Source: Gloeopeniophorella convolvens
Taxonomy: Eukaryota > Basidiomycota > Agaricomycetes > Russulales
Direction: 5' to 3'
DNA: 64,000 bases
Assembly: GCA_022496205.1 (NCBI GenBank)
Contig: WTXD01000012.1
Span: forward strand, 124,001 to 188,000
Shown: in pieces, positions 22,200 to 60,200 of the stretch
Position numbering within the stretch: position 1 is the first letter of the stretch
Layout: the number at the start of each line of letters is the position of its first letter
The notes under the pieces: generated by a model
Told to the model about the DNA's origin: nothing
Databases searched by the model: none
What the model saw: only the letters and a program-made list of their open reading frames with translations
Position numbers and translations under genes: made by a program

Positions 22200-22236
22200 T
22201 GCCACGTCAGCGTAAAAACAGGCGAGCGACGTGGCA
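22200..22236. promoter_or_regulatory. UPRE-like inverted repeat upstream of the bZIP gene
   Basis: TGCCACGTC (22200-22208) and GACGTGGCA (22228-22236) are perfect 9-nt inverted arms separated by 19 bases. The left arm continues to CCACGTCA, the reverse complement of TGACGTGG, which is the core of the metazoan XBP1 unfolded-protein response element. The right arm has CGACGTGG, one base off. The site lies 119-155 bases upstream of the bZIP start codon. A bZIP dimer binding each arm would fit. Binding by this particular factor is inference. Confidence 0.5.
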
Positions 22237-22354: not shown

Positions 22355-23550
22355 ATGGCTGCCTCAGACGCTTCCTTCGTAGACCCCTCCAATCTCGCTC
22401 TTCCCTCTCCATCACGCACCCCCGAGTCATCTACATCATCTCTCCCACCATCTTCCTCCTCCAAGCCTCCTGCCAAGTCTCGCCCCGCACCTACTACTGG
22501 CGATGACAACACTGCACCTCGGAAGCGGGCACGGTCCGACTTGACCCAGGAGGAGCGCAGAGAGGCTCGTGCACACCGCAACCGCATCGCTGCCCAGAAC
22601 AGCCGCGACAAGCGCAAGGCGCAGTTCTCCGCTCTCGAAGCTCGCATTGGTGAGCTCGAGGCCGAGAACCGTGCTCTCCGTGTAGGCATGGCCCACCCCC
22701 ACCCTTCCACCGACAACGCCGAACAGCGCGCAGCAAACGCTGCCCGCGAAGCGGAGAATTCTGCGCTGCGTGAGCGCGTGCGGGTTCTCGAGACCGGGTG
22801 GGAAGCTATCGTCCGCGCCCTCCAGACGCACGGCGTCGCCGCGGGTCTACCGTCTCTCCTCGTCCCACCACCTGCAGAGACGAACGCCCCATCACCATCA
22901 TCAGCGGCCTCATCACCGTCGCCCCCTCCGAGTACGACCACCTTCCCTGTACTCGTTCCGCCTACCCCCACCTTCCCTCTCGACCCCACTGCCTTCCCCC
23001 TCTCACCGGCGCCTTCCTACTCCAGCGCCGTATCCAGCATGTCAAGCCCCAGCGTCTTTGACCTTACGCATGAGTCCACTTGCCACTCAGCACGGGTGGT
23101 GAGCTCCGTCCCTCCGACGGCGTCCCTGCAGCGGGTGGACCCACGCAAACAGACGAAGACCTTGGTGCGCTCTTTGGCACTGCTGGTACGGACGAGGTCG
23201 TCGACGAGGCGGCGATGGATGATCTCTTCCGTGAGATCCTCGCGCCGTCCCCCGCGCCCTCCTCCACGACGCCGTCACTAATGGGCGGGGAGGGCGAGAT
23301 TCCGGGGCTAGACCTTGATCAGGGCTGGGCTGGCGCAGGCACGGACGCGGCGGCGGCGACGAAGGAAGCGGAGCGAGAGATGCAGAGGCTGCTGGACCTG
23401 ATGCCGGTCGACGGTACCGCACTCGGGCTGACGATAGACGGCGCGTCGCTACTGCCCATTGACAACGACTGTGGCAGCGGCGCGGCCGCGCTCGAGCTGG
23501 ACCTCGGCGCGTGGGAGACCTCCCTTGGCCTCGCGCAACCGGTGTTCTGA
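22355..23550 (+). CDS. HAC1/XBP1-like bZIP factor with candidate Ire1 intron
   Basis: This is a nuclear basic-leucine-zipper transcription factor. Residues 65-90 form the basic region (HRNRIAAQNSRDKRKAQ), close to the NRxAAQxSRxKxK pattern of HacA/XBP1. A zipper from about 93 on (FSALEARIGELEAENRALR) is continued by a second heptad stretch, then a Ser/Pro-rich segment. The start ATG at 22355 opens the frame that contains the bZIP. Unspliced, that frame ends at 23281 after 308 residues with an Arg/Ser-rich tail. The acidic frame that follows (QTDEDLGALFGTAGTDE, EAAMDDLFREIL) runs to the TGA at 23548. Removing 23091-23128 joins the two in phase to give 385 residues, as when HAC1/XBP1 mRNA is cut by Ire1. 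No ordinary GT-AG pair in the region gives this frame change. A missing base in the assembly is the main alternative. An upstream ORF and a UPRE-like repeat precede the gene. Confidence 0.82.
23079..23103 (+). promoter_or_regulatory. 5' Ire1-type stem-loop candidate
   Basis: Bases 23079-23087 pair with 23095-23103 over nine positions (six Watson-Crick, three G-U), leaving a 7-nt loop CAGCACG. Cleavage after the third base (CAG|C, between 23090 and 23091) falls one base into a codon. The loop fits the CNG|C part of the Ire1 consensus but has C instead of G at +3. Confidence 0.55.
23121..23137 (+). promoter_or_regulatory. 3' Ire1-type stem-loop candidate
   Basis: Five pairs (23121-23125 with 23133-23137; three Watson-Crick, two G-U) close a 7-nt loop CTGCAGC. 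This matches the Ire1 consensus CNG|CNGN in full. Cleavage between 23128 and 23129 leaves a 3' exon that continues the acidic frame in the right phase. Confidence 0.55.
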
Positions 23551-33942: not shown

Positions 33943-35729
33943 CTAAGAGGATACTTTGAATAAGGAAGACTCGGTCAGAGGTGCAGAATGTCCTCCGTGA
34001 GCCCATGAGCGAGGTGTCAAGCCCTTATAGGCACGGAGGATATCGCGCGCAGAGACAAGGCTGCGAATCATACCCCGCAAGCTGTAGGCTCTCCGGTGTC
34101 CTTGTCAATCCCCATCGGTAGTACATAGTCATCCGGCGTGTGCTCAGCTAGTCGAAGAATCGTCTTCTCCGCCCATTCCGTAATGGCGTATGTCAAGCTC
34201 TTGTATGTTGCGGAGCCTTTGGGATACATCCCATTCTTGACCGTCTGATCGAATTGCTGGAAGAATTTGAGAGAGATGTTTGTGATCTCGAGTCCTCCAA
34301 TCAAATCCACGTAACTAACGCGTCGAGAAGTTGCTCTGCAGCGCTAAACGTTGAGAAGAACTGCGGCTTGGATCGACTTGAGCGGATACTTCGAACTAGG
34401 GGAAAACGACCTTACATGACCACTGAACATTTCTTCCTCCAGGAAGAAGCCCAGTAGCACCGGTTGATCTCCGGCGTTAATAGGGAGGAGCTGCTTGAAG
34501 GCGTCGTCGATGACCTTCAAGCTGGAGAGCGCGCGATCGGAACATGGCTGGAACGTCTTTGAGTCGCAGCCCAGTGTCGGGTCAAAGTTCAGAACGGAGA
34601 CAGTGAGAGGCGCGACGCCATAGCCAGATCGCCCGCCTGTCGAGACGTCGGTGACGGTGGTTTCAGCCATAAACTCCTCATCTTCGTTCCAGAACGTCTG
34701 GCCCCAAAATATGCGCATCAGCACATCTCTAGCCGAAAATGTCCGGGGGTGTTACTTGCCTGCATGTAGTCAAGAATAAGAGCCGCTCGGCTCTGATAGT
34801 CGGCCGTGCTCTCCACACGACCAATCTTGCGGGAAAGCTGGGCGCCAGCGTACAGCGCGCGGTACTGCAATGATGCCGTCCAGTACGAACCGCCCCACAC
34901 GGGTGGCCACCATAGATCCCAGCTAATAATCAAAACGTGAACAGATTACTCATAAAGAGTTATCGAATCGATCGCCTACGAGCTCTCGTTCCAGTCTAAG
35001 GAGACCCATTGGAGATCGAGGTCAATGGCGGGCCAGAGGACGTCGGCCACCCATGTGCCATTATTCTGCTTCGACTCCAGCAGCCATTCAGCGTACTTGA
35101 CCAGCATTGCTGCGCGAAATGGCGGACCGTCTGTAGGGGATCATATGAGACTTGTGTGAGACAAAGGGAATAGCCAATGATAAGGAGCAGTACCGGCTGC
35201 GGGGGAGCCGACGCGAGCGGAGGGATCCAGGAGCTTGCCGATATGTTTGTCGAAAGCGACCTCCTCAAGGCCACCTGTGAATATATTCCCGGAGATGCTG
35301 GGGACATGCTGGGATCGTAGAAGGGCGTGGACGGCATCGTCAATGAATGGCCGCAGATACTGGGATTCGTCGCCGAAGGTGGCTAGTTCGTTGAGCCACG
35401 AATTGTACATGAGACAGTTATCGCGGATATAGAATGTTTCCCACTCGGGATGCTCGGGTACGGGTATGACGAGGAGAACGACACCCGGCTGGATGAGAAG
35501 CGTCAGTGCCACACCGATGGTATACATGGGAGAAAAATATAATTACATCGGATCCAGTCTCTGGCCCGGAGAGTTGATTGAAGATAACGTCGTTTGTAAC
35601 CGGGATGAGATGACCAAAGTATTCATCGAGAGAGATGCTGGAAGCTGTCGAAGAAGATACTGGAACCGCAGCAACAGCAGACAGGTAAGCTGCAGCAGAG
35701 GACAGCGAGAAGGGGAGCTGAGGCAGCAT
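33943..35729 (-). CDS. Secreted GH15 glucoamylase-fold protein, 3' copy, catalytic Glu lost
   Basis: A signal peptide (MLPQLPFSLSSAAAYLSAV) precedes a GH15 (alpha/alpha)6 domain. Family landmarks are FYIRDNCLMYNSWLNEL, TWVADVLWPAIDLDLQWVSL, DWNESSWDLW, LNFDPTLGCDSKTFQPCSDR and SAAEQLLDALVTWD. Aspergillus glucoamylase has its general acid in DLWEE; here the motif is DLWWPPVWGGSYWT. The general base lies in SEQYDK; here it is PMGIDK, with Met at the Glu position. Starch hydrolysis is therefore doubtful. One intron uses a GC donor (CAG|GCAAGT). Two missing G bases (in short runs at about 34307 and 34073-34076, seen as C on +) must be added; then the C-terminus (GMIRSLVSARDILRAYKG, SWAHGG) aligns with the neighbour's and ends at 33943. 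Unaltered, the frame stops early. Confidence 0.8.
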
Positions 35730-36765
35730 GGTGCGCAGAGAGATGCCTCTGAGCCATCATCGATGGGTCGCTGTTGTTTCGCCTTTTATGCTATCGCGAC
35801 GCCCTTATCCACCCAGGGCTTTAGCAGGTACATTTCCGCTTTGGACCCAGAGGGAGGGCTACGAGGATTTGGACCTTGCGAGCTGTGATAGGAATAGCTC
35901 GTCGGAATTCGTGGTAGTACCTGCAAGGGATAAGGCTATTGCCAGAGCAGCACGAGCATGTGGTGGCTCGTCGTCACAACCCTGTCCAGGCGAGCTCGCC
36001 TGGCGCCGGGTACATACTCCGAGCTACCTGCCAGAACGTTGGCGCGTGCCGTCAACCAGCATCAAGAGACTCATGGGCGTTTCGGACAGGCCGCGCGCTA
36101 GGTGGGTACCATGTTCCGCTTCCACTCGAAGGAAGCGCCCTTGGCACGTCCAAGGCGACGCAATAAGGTGCCCAGAAACGCGATATACACTGCGAGATCC
36201 GGGTGAGCAACATTCCGGAGGAGATCAGGAAGCCTTGAACGTGGTTCGAGGAAGGATGAGATCTTGAGATTCCGTCAAAGTGTTGAATCCGTACTTCGAT
36301 ATAACCGACTCTCACGTGCAGCATCTCAGAAAACGGGCACTAGCGGACAACTTGGACGTCAATTCTCGTCTTTTGGCGGTTCCCGATCCGTGCGATGATC
36401 TCCGTTCGAGTCAGCACGATTTGGCGGCAGTCACAGCCCGTCTACGTACCCACAACCCAGTTGGATCCGTGAAAAGCTTAACAGTACGCTCGTTTACTAT
36501 AACTTTCGTTTCCGGCGCGTGCATGTGGACAAACACGCGCGCAGTCCAATTTCCTCCGTGTTAACTTCATCCATACTAGTGTTGAGCGGCGCGCACCACG
36601 AGCGCGCAAAGTTGAACGTGCCCGACCCCTTCGGCGGGTGACGGGAATTAGTACCGGCGCCACAGCATGGTGCCCTACAGTGCCATCCCTAACCGACCCA
36701 TCCAAAGTAAGAGATTCAAAAACCATGCATAATACAAAGGAGGAACAAACAGTAGAGGAGACCCA
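35730..36765. other. Spacer between the two GH15 genes
   Basis: This holds the promoter of the 3' GH15 gene on its left and the downstream region of the 5' copy on its right. No coding frame was recognised, and it is the expected arrangement for a tandem duplication. Confidence 0.5.
35784..35790 (-). promoter_or_regulatory. TATA-like element of the 3' GH15 gene
   Basis: CATAAAA on the minus strand, followed by GG, lies about 55 bases upstream of the ATG at 35729. That is a reasonable core-promoter position. Confidence 0.45.
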
Positions 36766-38606
36766 TCAGAATGCGTCAAAGCGAGTCTGGAATCCAGCGG
36801 CGGCATCATCGCGCCATAAAGACCCTTCCACGCCCTGAGACTCGGACGCGTTCCCCGCCCTTCCAGCGACTCTCCGGCCACCATTGGCCCACGACGGCGG
36901 AACAAACCCGCCATACGCGTGATCGACGTCGAGCGCAGCGATGGTGTTGCGCAGCACCCCTCGCGGGCCCCCGGGCTCTCCGGTGTCCTTGTCGATCCAC
37001 ATCAGGGGAACGTAGTCCGCGGGCGTGTATCGTGCGAGCAGGACGAGCGTCATCTCGGCATGTTCCGTGATGGCGCGCGTCAGGCGCGCGTACGCCGCCG
37101 AGCCCTTCGGGTACGTGCCCGTGCGGATGCCCTTGTCGAACTGCTGGAAAAACTTGAGGGAGAGGTCTGTCACGGCGAGCTCGCCGAGTAGGTCCCAGGT
37201 GATGAGCGCGTCGAAGAGCTGTTCCGCGGCGTTGTAGGTCGAGAAGTGCTGCGGCTGCGGAGTGTCAGCAAGTGCTTCGATGTAGAAGCGGCGCGACCTT
37301 ACGTGTCCTCCGAATAGCTGCTCCTCTAAGTAGAACCCGAGGAGCGGCGGCTGACCTGCAGGCGCGCGCTGGTTGATGGGGAAGAGCTCCCAGAAAGCGT
37401 CGTTGACGACTTGCAAGCTAGAAAGCGCACGGTCGGAGCACGGCTGGAATGTCACGGAGTCACAGCCCAAAGATGGATCAAAGTTGAGGATAGAAACCGT
37501 GAGTGGAGCCACGCCGAGCCCGGAGCGCCCGCCGGTCGAGACGTCGGTGACTGTAGTTTCGGTCATGAATCCCTCTTCCTCATTCCAGAATGTCTGATGG
37601 ACGAAGTGGTCATCATGAGTAGGTGCAGCTCACGGGAGAAGTTGACGTACCTGAAGATAGTCGAGGATAACTGACGCACGATTCTCGTATTCAGCAGCGT
37701 TCTCTCCGCGACCGATGCTGTGGGCAATGCGGGCGCCGGTGTGCAGCGCACGATGTTGGAGTGACGCAGTCCAGAATGAGCCACCCCAAACGGGTGGCCA
37801 CCAGAGGTCCCACCTGGTGAAGAGCATGAGTCTGCGTAGAGCACTATGAGCTATTTCATCACATACGAGCTCTCGTTCCAGTGTAAGGAGATCCATTGGA
37901 GATCAAGCTCGATGGAAGGCCAGAGGACATCGGCCACCCATGTGCCGTTGCCTTGCTCCGCTTCTAATAACCAGTCAGCATATTTGGTCAGCGTCGCTGC
38001 GCGGAAGGGCGGGCCATCTATCAGGCGTCTCAGAGCTGAGCGAGAAAGGTATTACAGCGGCAGAGACGAACCGGCGGCTGGAGATCCGGGACGGGCTGCT
38101 AAGTTCAGGATTCTTCCAAGGTGAACGTCGAAAGCGGCCTCCTCCAAGCCACCAGTGAAGATGTTGCCTGCGATGCTGGTAACATGCTGGGTCCTGACGA
38201 GCGCATGCACCGCGTCGTCGATGAATTGGCGCAGATGAGGTGACTTGTCGTCGTGGGCAACAAGTTCGTTGAGCCATGAGTTGTAGACGAGACAGCCATC
38301 GCGGACCCAGTACACGTTCCACTCTGGGTGATCGGGATCAGGGAGGAGAGTCAAAATTACACCGGGCTGATCATGGGTCGTCAATCACTACCCGTCCACA
38401 AAGCGATCAGCCAAGTGGAATGCACGCACATCTGCCCCGGCTTCTGGTCCTGTCAGTTGGCGAAGGAGCACATCATTTAAGACCGGGATGAGGTGTTCCA
38501 GATAGCTTCGGACGGCACTGGTATGTTTCGTCGGTTCAAAAGGCGAGAAGGCGGTGGCCACCACCCAGTTCGCAGCAGCGATGGTAAGGAGATGCAAGAG
38601 GTACAT
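36766..38606 (-). CDS. Secreted GH15 glucoamylase-fold protein, 5' copy, catalytic Glu lost
   Basis: This is the paralogue of the preceding gene, on the same strand, with the same intron positions where I could follow them and an intact frame. The signal peptide is MYLLHLLTIAAANWVVATAF. Landmarks include VYWVRDGCLVYNSWLNELV, TWVADVLWPSIELDLQWISL, LNFDPSLGCDSVTFQPCSDR and NAAEQLFDALITWDLLGEL. The DLWEE general-acid motif is DLWWPPVWGGSFWT, and the general-base segment is LMWIDKDTGEP, again with Met at the Glu position. The same substitutions in both copies rule out a sequencing artefact and suggest a conserved non-hydrolytic role such as carbohydrate binding. The intron corresponding to the GC-AG one of the neighbour has an ordinary GT donor here. 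The C-terminus extends past the domain (AYGGFVPPSWANGG) to the TGA at 36766. Confidence 0.85.
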
Positions 38607-57218: not shown

Positions 57219-60200
57219 ATGTCGGCGGCAGGCATCCCAACTTCCAATGGCACACTCCCCACGAACGCTGCGTCACCACCGAAACCCTCCAGTAACGGAC
57301 ATGCGCTGTCGAACGGCACCTCTGACCGGATGCAAATTATCAATGACAAGAAGGAGTTCACGTATGACTACCTACGAGGGCACCTTTATCGAGTGCTGAG
57401 CGTTGTCACCTAGGCCTGAACTGAACGGCCAAATCTCTGCATGGGATCTGCACGACGTAGGTTTCGACTACAACCTTGTCGCGGTATTCGGCTCCCAGTC
57501 GACAGGGAAAAGTGCGTATCTCGAGTGATTTTCCGAGCCATGTGTCAACCATGCATTGCTCAGGTACTTTGCTGAACCGGTTGTTCGGTACCAACTTTGA
57601 TGTCATGGACGAAACGCAACGGCAACAAACGACGAAGGGTAAGTAACAACATCCTTAATACATCACTCGTTACCTTCCGAAGGTTGCATTGGAGGAGCTG
57701 TGTGTAAGCGCGCCTCTGGACATGGTCACACAGACCCCGCTCGGAGACATGCTGCGAGCCGTGGAGCGTTTCTCCGAGCGTCCTAAATACTATCTCCAGG
57801 GTGCCTTGGTCATGCAGGCTTACCTTCCCTTAGGTATCTGGATGTGTAGGGGCCGCGATATGAACGTCTTGGTTATGGATGTGGAAGGTACGGATGGGCG
57901 TGAACGTGGGGAGGATCAGGTGCGCTCCTCGAATACTTTTATCCAACTGCGTCTGACCCTACGTCTCAGGACTTTGAACGCAAATCTGCTCTGTTCTCAC
58001 TCGCATCATCGGAGGTCCTTATTGTCAATCTATGGGAGCACCAAGTCGGTCTGTATCAAGGTGCCAATATGGGCCTTCTCAAGACCGTCTTCGAAGTCAA
58101 TCTTGGATTGTTCGGAAAGAAGACGCAAGAGAGGTGAGTGGTCTCCACTTCTGCTGGTGTCATCTCATGCATAAAATCTCACAGCGTGAACCAACGCACA
58201 CTCCTTCTATTTGTCATCCGCGACCACATCGGAACTACACCCTTGGCCAACCTTCAGGCGACGCTGACCGCCGACTTGCAGCGCATCTGGGACAGCCTCT
58301 CGAAGCCAGCTGAATTGCAAGACCGGCAGTTAAGCGACTATTTTGACCTTGCCTTCACGGCCTTGCCGCACAAGATCCTTGCTGCCGACAAGTTCGAGGC
58401 AGACGTCAAGTCACTGCGCGGCCGCTTCACAGACAAATCAAGAGACGACTTCATCTTCAAGCCCGCCTATCACAAGCGCATCCCTGCTGATGGTGTTGCG
58501 TTCTATATGGAAGGTATTTGGGTACGTATGCTCCACCCCAAGGCGCCGATAGGTGCTGACGCCGTTACGCAACGTGTAGGAACAAGTGCAAACAAACAAG
58601 GACCTCGACCTGCCCACTCAGCAGGAGCTCCTTGCCCAATTCCGTTGTGATGAGATTTCGGCAGGCGCACTCGCCGAGTTCAGTGAGCAGGCCAAGTCTC
58701 AGAAGCGTCCGATTGAGGTGGGCAAGGTTGTCGACGGGCTTGGCGAGATGATGCGCAACTGGCGCACGCAGGCGCTCGGTGCGTGACTGGTTTACTCAGC
58801 TGCGCGTGCGCGATCGTGGCTAACAACATCATTGTCACAGCACGGTACGATCGCGACGCGTCGCGGTATCACCAAGGCGTGTACAAGCGCAAGCGTGTGG
58901 ATCTCGTCAGCACGCTCGACTCAACACTATCGCCGTTGTTCGTCGGACAGCTGAAGAATGTGCACAAAGCTGCGCTCGTTTCATTCAAAGCGGAAATCGT
59001 CGCCGGCCTCAAGGTGGAAGGGTACAACTTCGCGGATGTTGTCAGCAAGGCGCGTGCTGGGGCGGAGTCGCGCTTTTCACAAGGCGCGAAGGAAGCCGTT
59101 GTTGTCGAGGGCGATGCCATATGGGAGTGGGAGGAGGAACAGCGGCTGTTGCATGAGGAAATCCAGTCTGTCGCGGACCAGCTGAGGAAGGATGAGACAA
59201 AGAAGATGGTCAACGCAATAGAGGTATGTGCCATCCGGAGGAAGTGTCCGGTGATCATGTTAACGATCCGTCCAGCGTAACTTCAAGAAGCAGATCTCGG
59301 AGCCAGTCGATTTGCAGCTGAGCAAACCCACACCCGAGATGTGGGATAATGTCCTGCGGACATACAAAGAGACGCTCGGGAAGTCCGAGGTGTCTTACCT
59401 GACCAAGGCCAAGAGTAATTATCTCACGGGTACCCTTTTTCCGCATCCACTAACTGCCGCCCCAATAGGCTTCGACTGCACGGAGGAAGAGAACGACGAG
59501 GCGCTCGGGACGCTACGGCAGCGGGCGTGGGCCGCGCTGCGCGTCAAGGTCGACGAGCAGACGGCCGACAGTGCACTGCTGACGAAGCTACGCGGCTACT
59601 TCGAGGAGCGCTTCCGGTACGACGAGAGTGGTGTGCCGCGTGTCTGGAAGCCCGACGATGATATCGATGGCGCGTTCACGAAAGCGAAGGACGTGACCCT
59701 CACTCTGCTTCCCCTGTACGCGAAGATCGCACCGCAAGACTCCGCATTCGCCTACAGCCCGCCCGAGGACAGCGAGGACGGCGTGCCGGGCCTCGCAGTG
59801 CTGTCCGAGACGAAGACCATCGAGCTCGCCGCGCGCTTCCGGCGCGAGGCGGACGCGCACTACGTCGAGGCGAAGCGCAGCACCGTCGCGAGCATCGCGC
59901 AGATCCCGTACTGGGTGTACGGCGTGCTCGTCGTTCTCGGATGGAACGAGGCAATGCTGGTCCTCTTCAATCCACTGTACTTCACCATGCTTCTCGTCCT
60001 CGCGGCCGGCGCGTGAGTCCCTGCTTTAGCCCTGTTCCGCTCCGGTAATAGCGGTCGCTGATGAGATGTATGATCTGCGCAGGTGGATCATCGTGCAGCT
60101 CAACCTTGTCGGCCCGCTCATGCATGTTGGCGGCTCTGTCGCGCGCGAGGTGAGCACGCCGGCCTTGGCTGACTGCAGCTGATTCTGATCGATGCTGATG

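What the first reader, a model, noticed from the sequence alone, without database searches (positions are those of the whole stretch)
23079..23137. Candidate Ire1-type unconventional intron of 38 nt in a HAC1/XBP1-like bZIP gene
The bZIP frame must change frame to reach a long acidic C-terminal frame. Two stem-loops bracket bases 23091-23128. The 5' one has nine pairs and loop CAG|CACG; the 3' one has five pairs and loop CTG|CAGC. Cutting both after the third loop base removes 38 nt (2 mod 3) and joins the frames in phase. No GT-AG pair in the region does so. HAC1, hacA, XBP1, HXL1 and CIB1 mRNAs are spliced this way, and the basic region NRIAAQNSRDKRK is of that class. Weak points: the 5' loop lacks G at +3, and single-base omissions occur elsewhere in this assembly.
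Basis: partly seen in the sequence, partly recalled or inferred. Interest (0 to 1): 0.88.

Follow-up and report, generated by a model that had tools for sequence, protein, structure and literature searches.

The report
Candidate Ire1-spliced HAC1-type fungal gene
A fungal gene that looks like the master switch of the ER stress response appears to need a small piece of its messenger RNA cut out by a stress sensor rather than by the normal splicing machinery; this is an expected kind of system with a slightly unusual cut site, and no RNA data were available to prove it.

Summary
The sequence facts mostly hold. A bZIP frame (22355-23281) must change frame to reach an acidic frame (to 23550), and removing 23091-23128 (38 nt) joins them into 385 aa. 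The claim that no GT-AG pair can do this is wrong: 142 in-phase pairs of 38-400 nt exist. Those of ordinary length (up to 113 nt here) have a poor donor or acceptor or contradict codon usage; two longer ones (200 and 362 nt) are not excluded. Independent evidence supports a HAC1/Cib1-type gene: two Cib1-type UPR elements (TGCCACGTCG/A) lie within 37 bp upstream, a BiP promoter has one, and Ire1 and a Trl1-type ligase are encoded. The 3' loop CUG|CAGC fits the Ire1 motif exactly. Weak points: the 5' loop CAG|CACG lacks G at +3; the 3' hairpin is predicted to form rarely; folding energy is ordinary; there were no relatives and no RNA reads. This Ire1 has the S. pombe/human-like interface residues linked to relaxed cleavage, which may accommodate the odd 5' loop. 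Verdict: probably a real Ire1 intron, a new member of a known kind; the exact ends are likely but unproven.

The parts
22200..22209 (+). UPR-element-like site TGCCACGTCA
   Evidence: same 10-mer in a BiP promoter; core equals the U. maydis Cib1 UPRE core TGCCACGT (PMC4836707 passage)
22227..22236 (-). UPR-element-like site TGCCACGTCG, identical to the U. maydis pit1/2 UPRE
   Evidence: 265 TGCCACGTCR sites in 36.7 Mb
22355..23090 (+). Proposed exon 1: N-terminus, bZIP domain, Pro/Ser-rich linker
   Evidence: ORF; Pfam bZIP_1 and bZIP_2, E 1e-8
22550..22684 (+). bZIP domain, residues 66-110
23079..23103 (+). 5' stem-loop, 9 pairs, loop CAG|CACG, cut proposed after 23090
   Evidence: pair probabilities 0.31-0.81
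23091..23128 (+). Proposed 38-nt Ire1 intron; contains a small stable hairpin 23106-23120
   Evidence: joins the two frames; intron hairpin probability above 0.98
23121..23137 (+). 3' stem-loop, 5 pairs, loop CTG|CAGC, cut proposed after 23128
   Evidence: loop fits CNG|(C/A)NGN (PMC8104961, PMC6037481 passages); stem weak
23074..23083 (+). 5' half of exon-exon helix pairing with 23131-23140
23131..23140 (+). 3' half of exon-exon helix pairing with 23074-23083
23129..23550 (+). Proposed exon 2: acidic C-terminal frame, stop 23548-23550
   Evidence: 26 D/E versus 4 K/R; codon usage favours this frame over the bZIP frame from about 23165 on
23091..23281 (+). Tail read if unspliced: basic, 18 K/R versus 1 D/E

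Best explanation
This is the fungus's HAC1/XBP1/Cib1-type unfolded-protein-response gene. The unspliced mRNA encodes a 308-aa bZIP protein with a short basic tail. Under ER stress, Ire1 cuts the mRNA after 23090 and after 23128, the Trl1-type tRNA ligase joins the exons, and the mRNA then encodes a 385-aa bZIP factor with an acidic, probably activating, C-terminus. That factor likely acts on TGCCACGTCR-type elements, including its own promoter and that of BiP. Shown here: frames, phase, loops, promoter elements, Ire1 and ligase genes. Inferred: cleavage, ligation, stress dependence, exact ends, activation, autoregulation.
For: Removing 23091-23128 joins the frames. The 23090/23128 pair is the only in-phase CNG 7-nt-loop pair with both stems >=5 in 22700-23420, seen in about 0.2-1.3% of shuffles depending on the criterion. 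The 3' loop CUG|CAGC is cleaved by both S. cerevisiae and S. pombe Ire1 in vitro (passage of PMC6037481). Within 23073-23281, the stretch where a direct switch is possible, codon usage puts it at about 23073-23165, where the hairpins lie. The tail switches from 18 basic/1 acidic to 4 basic/26 acidic. Ire1 RNase domain and Trl1-type ligase are present, with the residues at yeast Ire1 positions N1057, K1058, H1060 and H1061 kept. Two Cib1-type UPR elements lie 119-155 bp upstream of the ATG; U. maydis cib1 itself carries this element (PMC4836707 passage). A BiP promoter has the same 10-mer at -109. None of the 40 in-phase GT-AG pairs of 38-150 nt has both donor and acceptor scores above zero and agreement with codon usage.
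Against: The 5' loop lacks G at +3, required in CNG|(C/A)NGN and in CNG|NNGN. The 3' hairpin is predicted to form rarely (0.000-0.036). Local folding energy is ordinary (z -0.57). Codon scores do not prefer the 38-nt model: 23041-23090 scores +2.3 against -1.1, and several long GT-AG introns that drop the linker score 9-17 bits better. Two of these have acceptable splice sites: 22770-23131 (362 nt, +4.8 bits) and 22932-23131 (200 nt, +2.6 bits). No Rfam match. No relatives or RNA reads could be examined. The PDI-like promoter has no CCACGT core; the upstream side of a second BiP-like copy has one core in the 1301 bases fetched but no TGCCACGT, its start codon not located.
Confidence: 0.66

Rival explanations
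1. A conventional spliceosomal intron joins the frames constitutively: a long one that removes the Pro/Ser-rich linker (22770-23131, 362 nt, GTGAGC...CTGCAG; or 22932-23131, 200 nt, GTACGA...CTGCAG), or 23041-23090 (50 nt, GTCAAG...CTCAG).
For: All are in phase. The long ones have splice scores of +4.8 and +2.6 bits, inside the range of the 36 model introns (-3.2 to +6.9), and better total codon scores than the 38-nt model (+13.7, +9.3). 23041-23090 has typical length, a good acceptor, a CTTAC branch-like site and a codon score of +2.3 against -1.1.
Against: The 36 model introns are 46-113 nt long (candidates up to 200 nt were allowed). The long candidates have few stop triplets (0.011-0.015 per nt against 0.041 in model introns), and with amino-acid content set aside codon choice in the linker leans to the bZIP frame (z +1.78 against -1.63 for the acidic frame), though that score is weak and misleads in the N-terminus. 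The gain in total codon score comes from dropping a Pro/Ser-rich stretch, and the Pro/Ser-rich N-terminus also scores below zero. 23041-23090 has a donor of -6.6 bits, below 36 of 36. All would leave the hairpin pair and the exact 3' Ire1 loop as coincidence.
Confidence: 0.14
2. An Ire1 intron is present in this gene but with other ends, for example 41 nt (23091-23131, cut CAG|CGGG), or with a different 5' site.
For: 23131 has a strict CNG|CNGN loop and the 41-nt version is also in phase; the proposed 5' loop is off consensus.
Against: The 23131 hairpin has 3 pairs and +4.1 kcal/mol; no other 5' hairpin with a CNG 7-nt loop and stem >=5 lies in 22700-23420 upstream of it.
Confidence: 0.12
3. 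Assembly error: one base is missing between 23073 and 23281 and the gene has a single open frame.
Against: At 38 junctions between matched exons of conserved genes no frameshift was seen: 36 fit GT-AG introns, one fits a GC-AG intron read by eye, one spans unmatched exons. Only one copy of the locus was found in the assembly, so no second allele could be compared.
Confidence: 0.07
4. Programmed -1 ribosomal frameshifting joins the frames.
For: The shift direction would fit a -1 slip.
Against: No X XXY YYZ slippery heptamer in 23040-23281 in any frame.
Confidence: 0.01

Closest known systems
U. maydis Cib1 (Hac1-like regulator)
   Same: Regulator made from an mRNA with an intron removed by Ire1 (PMC6918084 passage); its own promoter carries the pit1/2 UPR element TGCCACGTCG (PMC4836707 passage)
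C. neoformans HXL1
   Same: bZIP gene with an Ire1 intron (56 nt) downstream of the bZIP; unspliced and spliced mRNAs both have long reading frames (PMC3154848 and PMC6116095 passages)
   Different: 56 nt rather than 38; HXL1 also has a conventional 55-nt intron, none is needed for the reading proposed here
Metazoan XBP1
   Same: Twin 7-nt-loop hairpins, short intron of length 2 mod 3 (26 nt), unspliced form translated; 3' loop CUG|CAGC (recalled for XBP1)
   Different: XBP1 5' loop CCGCAGC fits the consensus; here CAGCACG does not
S. cerevisiae HAC1
   Same: Ire1 plus Trl1/Rlg1-type ligase
   Different: 252-nt intron with translational block (PMC6116095 passage); here 38 nt

Membership tests
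HAC1/XBP1/Cib1-type UPR genes | bZIP domain in the first exon | tested here: met
   Pfam bZIP_1 and bZIP_2, E 1e-8
HAC1/XBP1/Cib1-type UPR genes | Orthology by sequence to known HAC1/Cib1/HXL1 | not testable with these tools
   Homologue search timed out or was off; no relatives in viral or prokaryote contigs
HAC1/XBP1/Cib1-type UPR genes | Excision changes the reading frame to an activation-type tail | tested here: met
   (sequence level only)
HAC1/XBP1/Cib1-type UPR genes | UPR element in own promoter and in BiP promoter | tested here: met
   motif presence only; the second BiP-like copy has no TGCCACGT in the piece fetched
Ire1-type intron | 3' site CNG|(C/A)NGN in a 7-nt hairpin loop | tested here: inconclusive
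   Loop CUG|CAGC met; hairpin predicted rarely formed
Ire1-type intron | 5' site CNG|(C/A)NGN in a 7-nt hairpin loop | tested here: not met
   CAG|CACG lacks G at +3; nine-pair stem, but a tenth pair closes the loop to 5 nt in the minimum-energy hairpin
Ire1-type intron | Ire1 RNase and tRNA ligase encoded in the genome | tested here: met
Ire1-type intron | Stress-dependent, Ire1-dependent removal in RNA | not testable with these tools
   no RNA data
Spliceosomal intron | In-phase GT-AG pair with typical donor, acceptor and length that agrees with codon usage | tested here: inconclusive
   Of 142 pairs of 38-400 nt, ten have donor and acceptor scores both at or above 0; two of those ten (362 and 200 nt) do not contradict codon usage, but both are longer than all 36 model introns

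The most novel reading that the evidence does not exclude
This lineage's Ire1 splices its HAC1-type mRNA at an asymmetric pair of sites: a canonical CUG|CAGC at the 3' end and a relaxed CAG|CACG at the 5' end, where the strong stem and a C-3:G+4 pair replace the usual G at +3. The relaxed site would go with the Asp992/Lys1059-type dimer interface of its Ire1, and exon-exon pairing (23074-23083 with 23131-23140) would hold the exons for ligation.
Probability: 0.33. Interest if true: 0.6.

Novelty: new member of a known kind. Interest (0 to 1): 0.45.

Why it matters
If true, it gives a HAC1-type gene with a testable intron and UPR element in a fungus where ordinary gene prediction would truncate or mis-splice it. 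The Pycnoporus cinnabarinus genome paper reports no clear Hac1/XBP1 orthologue although Ire1 and Trl1 were present (PMC4101180 passage). The off-consensus 5' loop would test how far natural Ire1 enzymes of the S. pombe/human-like interface class relax the published loop motif while still splicing.

Tried and rejected
Relatives in viral and prokaryote contigs: 12 and 175 stretches matched a pattern, none encoded a relative. Rfam: only two sub-threshold sR53 hits. PDB sequence search of the bZIP frame: weak CREB, FOS, C/EBP, JUN and ATF-2 matches plus ribosomal S11 chance matches (E 0.016 or worse), not informative for class. Second allele of the locus: none found. Slippery site: none. Local folding energy as evidence: rejected. 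The Hooks and Griffiths-Jones paper on HAC1/XBP1 introns is not held. Searches of the held library for HAC1 introns in basidiomycetes and mushrooms listed none that, by title or start of abstract, describes an Agaricomycete one; of the papers cited I saw passages, and one section of PMC8104961, no whole paper.

Dropped rows: the intron model used 35 of 42 rows (left out: five rows of contig C181 that repeat C168, C370, one C1 row), 16 of 26 rows, and 2 of 2 each. GT-AG candidates were found at 36 of 38 junctions; the chosen one is uncertain at a few, and six of the 36 have a negative total score. An earlier pass with a narrower search left several CCT junctions without a candidate. The donor comparison is not independent of the procedure that chose the 36.

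Full report
What is there. A frame opens with ATG at 22355 and ends at 23281 (308 aa). It holds a bZIP domain (Pfam bZIP_1 and bZIP_2, E 1e-8). A second frame, 23074-23550, is acidic. Removing 23091-23128 joins them into 385 aa (the 387 printed there counts the stop and one residue beyond it). One copy of the locus was found in the assembly.

Where the frame must change. With codon usage from matched exons of chaperonin, proteasome, Ire1 and ligase genes (5,309 codons), the acidic frame outscores the bZIP frame from about 23165 on, and direct switch points between about 23073 and 23165 score about equally. The hairpins fall inside this stretch. The spliced tail has 26 acidic and 4 basic residues; the unspliced tail has 1 acidic and 18 basic. 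A caution: in the Pro/Ser-rich linker (windows starting 22865, 22895 and 22985) total codon usage favours the acidic frame over the bZIP frame, and the N-terminus of the bZIP frame also scores below zero. With amino-acid content set aside, the linker leans to the bZIP frame (z +1.78 against -1.63), but the same score is misleading in the N-terminus (z -0.71 for the bZIP frame, +2.99 for the third frame). Codon usage is therefore weak evidence in the low-complexity parts.

The hairpins. In 22700-23420 only five CNG 7-nt-loop hairpins have three or more pairs, and the pair at 23090 and 23128 is the only in-phase pair with both stems of at least five pairs. Shuffles give such a pair in 65 of 5000, with one strict loop in 17 of 5000, and with one stem of nine in 8 of 5000; other real segments of the window give 8, 1 and 0 of 406. 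This is suggestive and was judged after the fact. The 3' loop CUG|CAGC matches the published motif, and that loop is cleaved by both S. cerevisiae and S. pombe Ire1 in vitro (passage of PMC6037481). The 5' loop CAG|CACG lacks the G at +3.

Against the hairpins. The region's folding energy is ordinary (z -0.57). The minimum-energy fold pairs exon bases 23074-23083 with 23131-23140. The 3' hairpin has pair probabilities of 0.000-0.036 and the 5' hairpin 0.31-0.81. After removal of the 38 nt the exons can still form the ten-pair helix, which recalls the exon zipper proposed for XBP1 (I saw only the title of that paper in a reference list). The XBP1 5' stem-loop quoted in PMC9472280 is itself only -0.8 kcal/mol by the same program, so a weak 3' stem is not disqualifying.

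Spliceosomal rivals. I built a donor and acceptor model from 36 introns of this genome, 46-113 nt long. Among the 40 short pairs, the one in the right place, 23041-23090, has a good acceptor and a CTTAC branch-like site, but its donor scores -6.6 bits, below 36 of 36; the best by splice score, 23231-23322 (+2.0 bits), disagrees with codon usage (17.9 bits below the 38-nt model). Among longer pairs, 22770-23131 (362 nt, +4.8 bits) and 22932-23131 (200 nt, +2.6 bits) have acceptable sites and better total codon scores than the 38-nt model. They are longer than every model intron, and have few stop triplets (0.011 and 0.015 per nt against 0.041 in model introns), which fits coding linker better than intron. 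I rank them below the Ire1 reading but they are not excluded.

Assembly error. A single missing base would also explain the frames. In the conserved genes used, 36 of 38 exon junctions fit GT-AG introns in frame, one fits a GC-AG intron that I read by eye, and one spans unmatched exons. No frameshift was seen at these junctions.

Is it a HAC1-type gene? U. maydis Cib1 binds promoter regions whose predicted UPREs share TGCCACGT followed by CG or GT; the pit1/2 element is TGCCACGTCG, and the cib1 promoter carries it too (passages of PMC4836707). This gene has TGCCACGTCA at 22200-22209 and TGCCACGTCG at 22227-22236 on the minus strand. TGCCACGTCR occurs 265 times in the genome (the reversed control pattern 207 times), about once per 138 kb; among the 100 places listed of 265 this is the only pair within 100 bp. 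Of five other promoters examined (500 bp each), a BiP gene (HDEL end) has four CCACGT cores including TGACGTGGCA at -109; ERO1 and calnexin have one core each, at -129 and -119; a PDI-like gene has none; a cytosolic HSP70 has one core but none of the three seven-base forms counted. A second BiP-like copy (C342) has one core and no TGCCACGT in the 1301 bases fetched on its upstream side; its start codon was not located. Of 250 other half-overlapping window tiles of 500 bp, none has three GCCACGT; this gene and the C301 BiP each have three. I first noticed the motif by eye in this promoter and then found it to match the published element. Of the four other bZIP-domain matches in the genome, three have clearly different basic regions (L003 and L005; L002); the fourth, L004, I could not judge.

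The enzymes. The genome encodes an Ire1 RNase domain and a Trl1-type ligase. The RNase region aligns with yeast and human IRE1 (E about 1e-32) and keeps the residues at yeast positions 1056-1058, 1060 and 1061; the residue at 1039 is Lys instead of Arg. It has Asp at the 992 position and Lys at the 1059 position, the S. pombe-like pattern shared by 175 of 230 Ire1 proteins, human included (PMC8104961 passage). Yeast Ire1 changed to a pattern of that type (K992D,Y1059R) accepts looser loops; on HAC1-derived loops it still needs CNG|NNGN, on one S. pombe substrate only G and C around the cut (PMC8104961 section 8). That makes the off-consensus 5' loop plausible but does not show that it is cut.

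Verdict. Most likely a HAC1/Cib1-type UPR gene with a short Ire1 intron, new as an instance and not as a kind. The exact ends, and the reality of 5' cleavage, need RNA.

Noticed in passing
G000 contigs C168 and C181: The same chaperonin gene appears with identical match scores on two contigs, suggesting a duplicated or redundant stretch of the assembly.
   Followed up: no
G000 C301:27216-29349 and C342:29350-31003: Two BiP-like HSP70 genes, both ending in HDEL; no start was found for the C342 copy in the piece fetched.
   Followed up: partly
G000 C372:618470-618620: A chaperonin gene seems to contain a GC-AG intron (GCAAGG...CACAG).
   Followed up: partly
window 34155-38318, minus strand: Two similar sets of coding stretches side by side, one tested and matching glycoside hydrolase family 15; a likely tandem duplication.
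   Followed up: no
window 58186-60013, plus strand: Sey1-type gene (Sey1_3HB, E 2e-60; the 59270-60013 stretch was tested), another ER gene in the same window.
   Followed up: no
window 23106-23120: A small, very stable hairpin (probability above 0.98) lies inside the proposed intron.
   Followed up: partly
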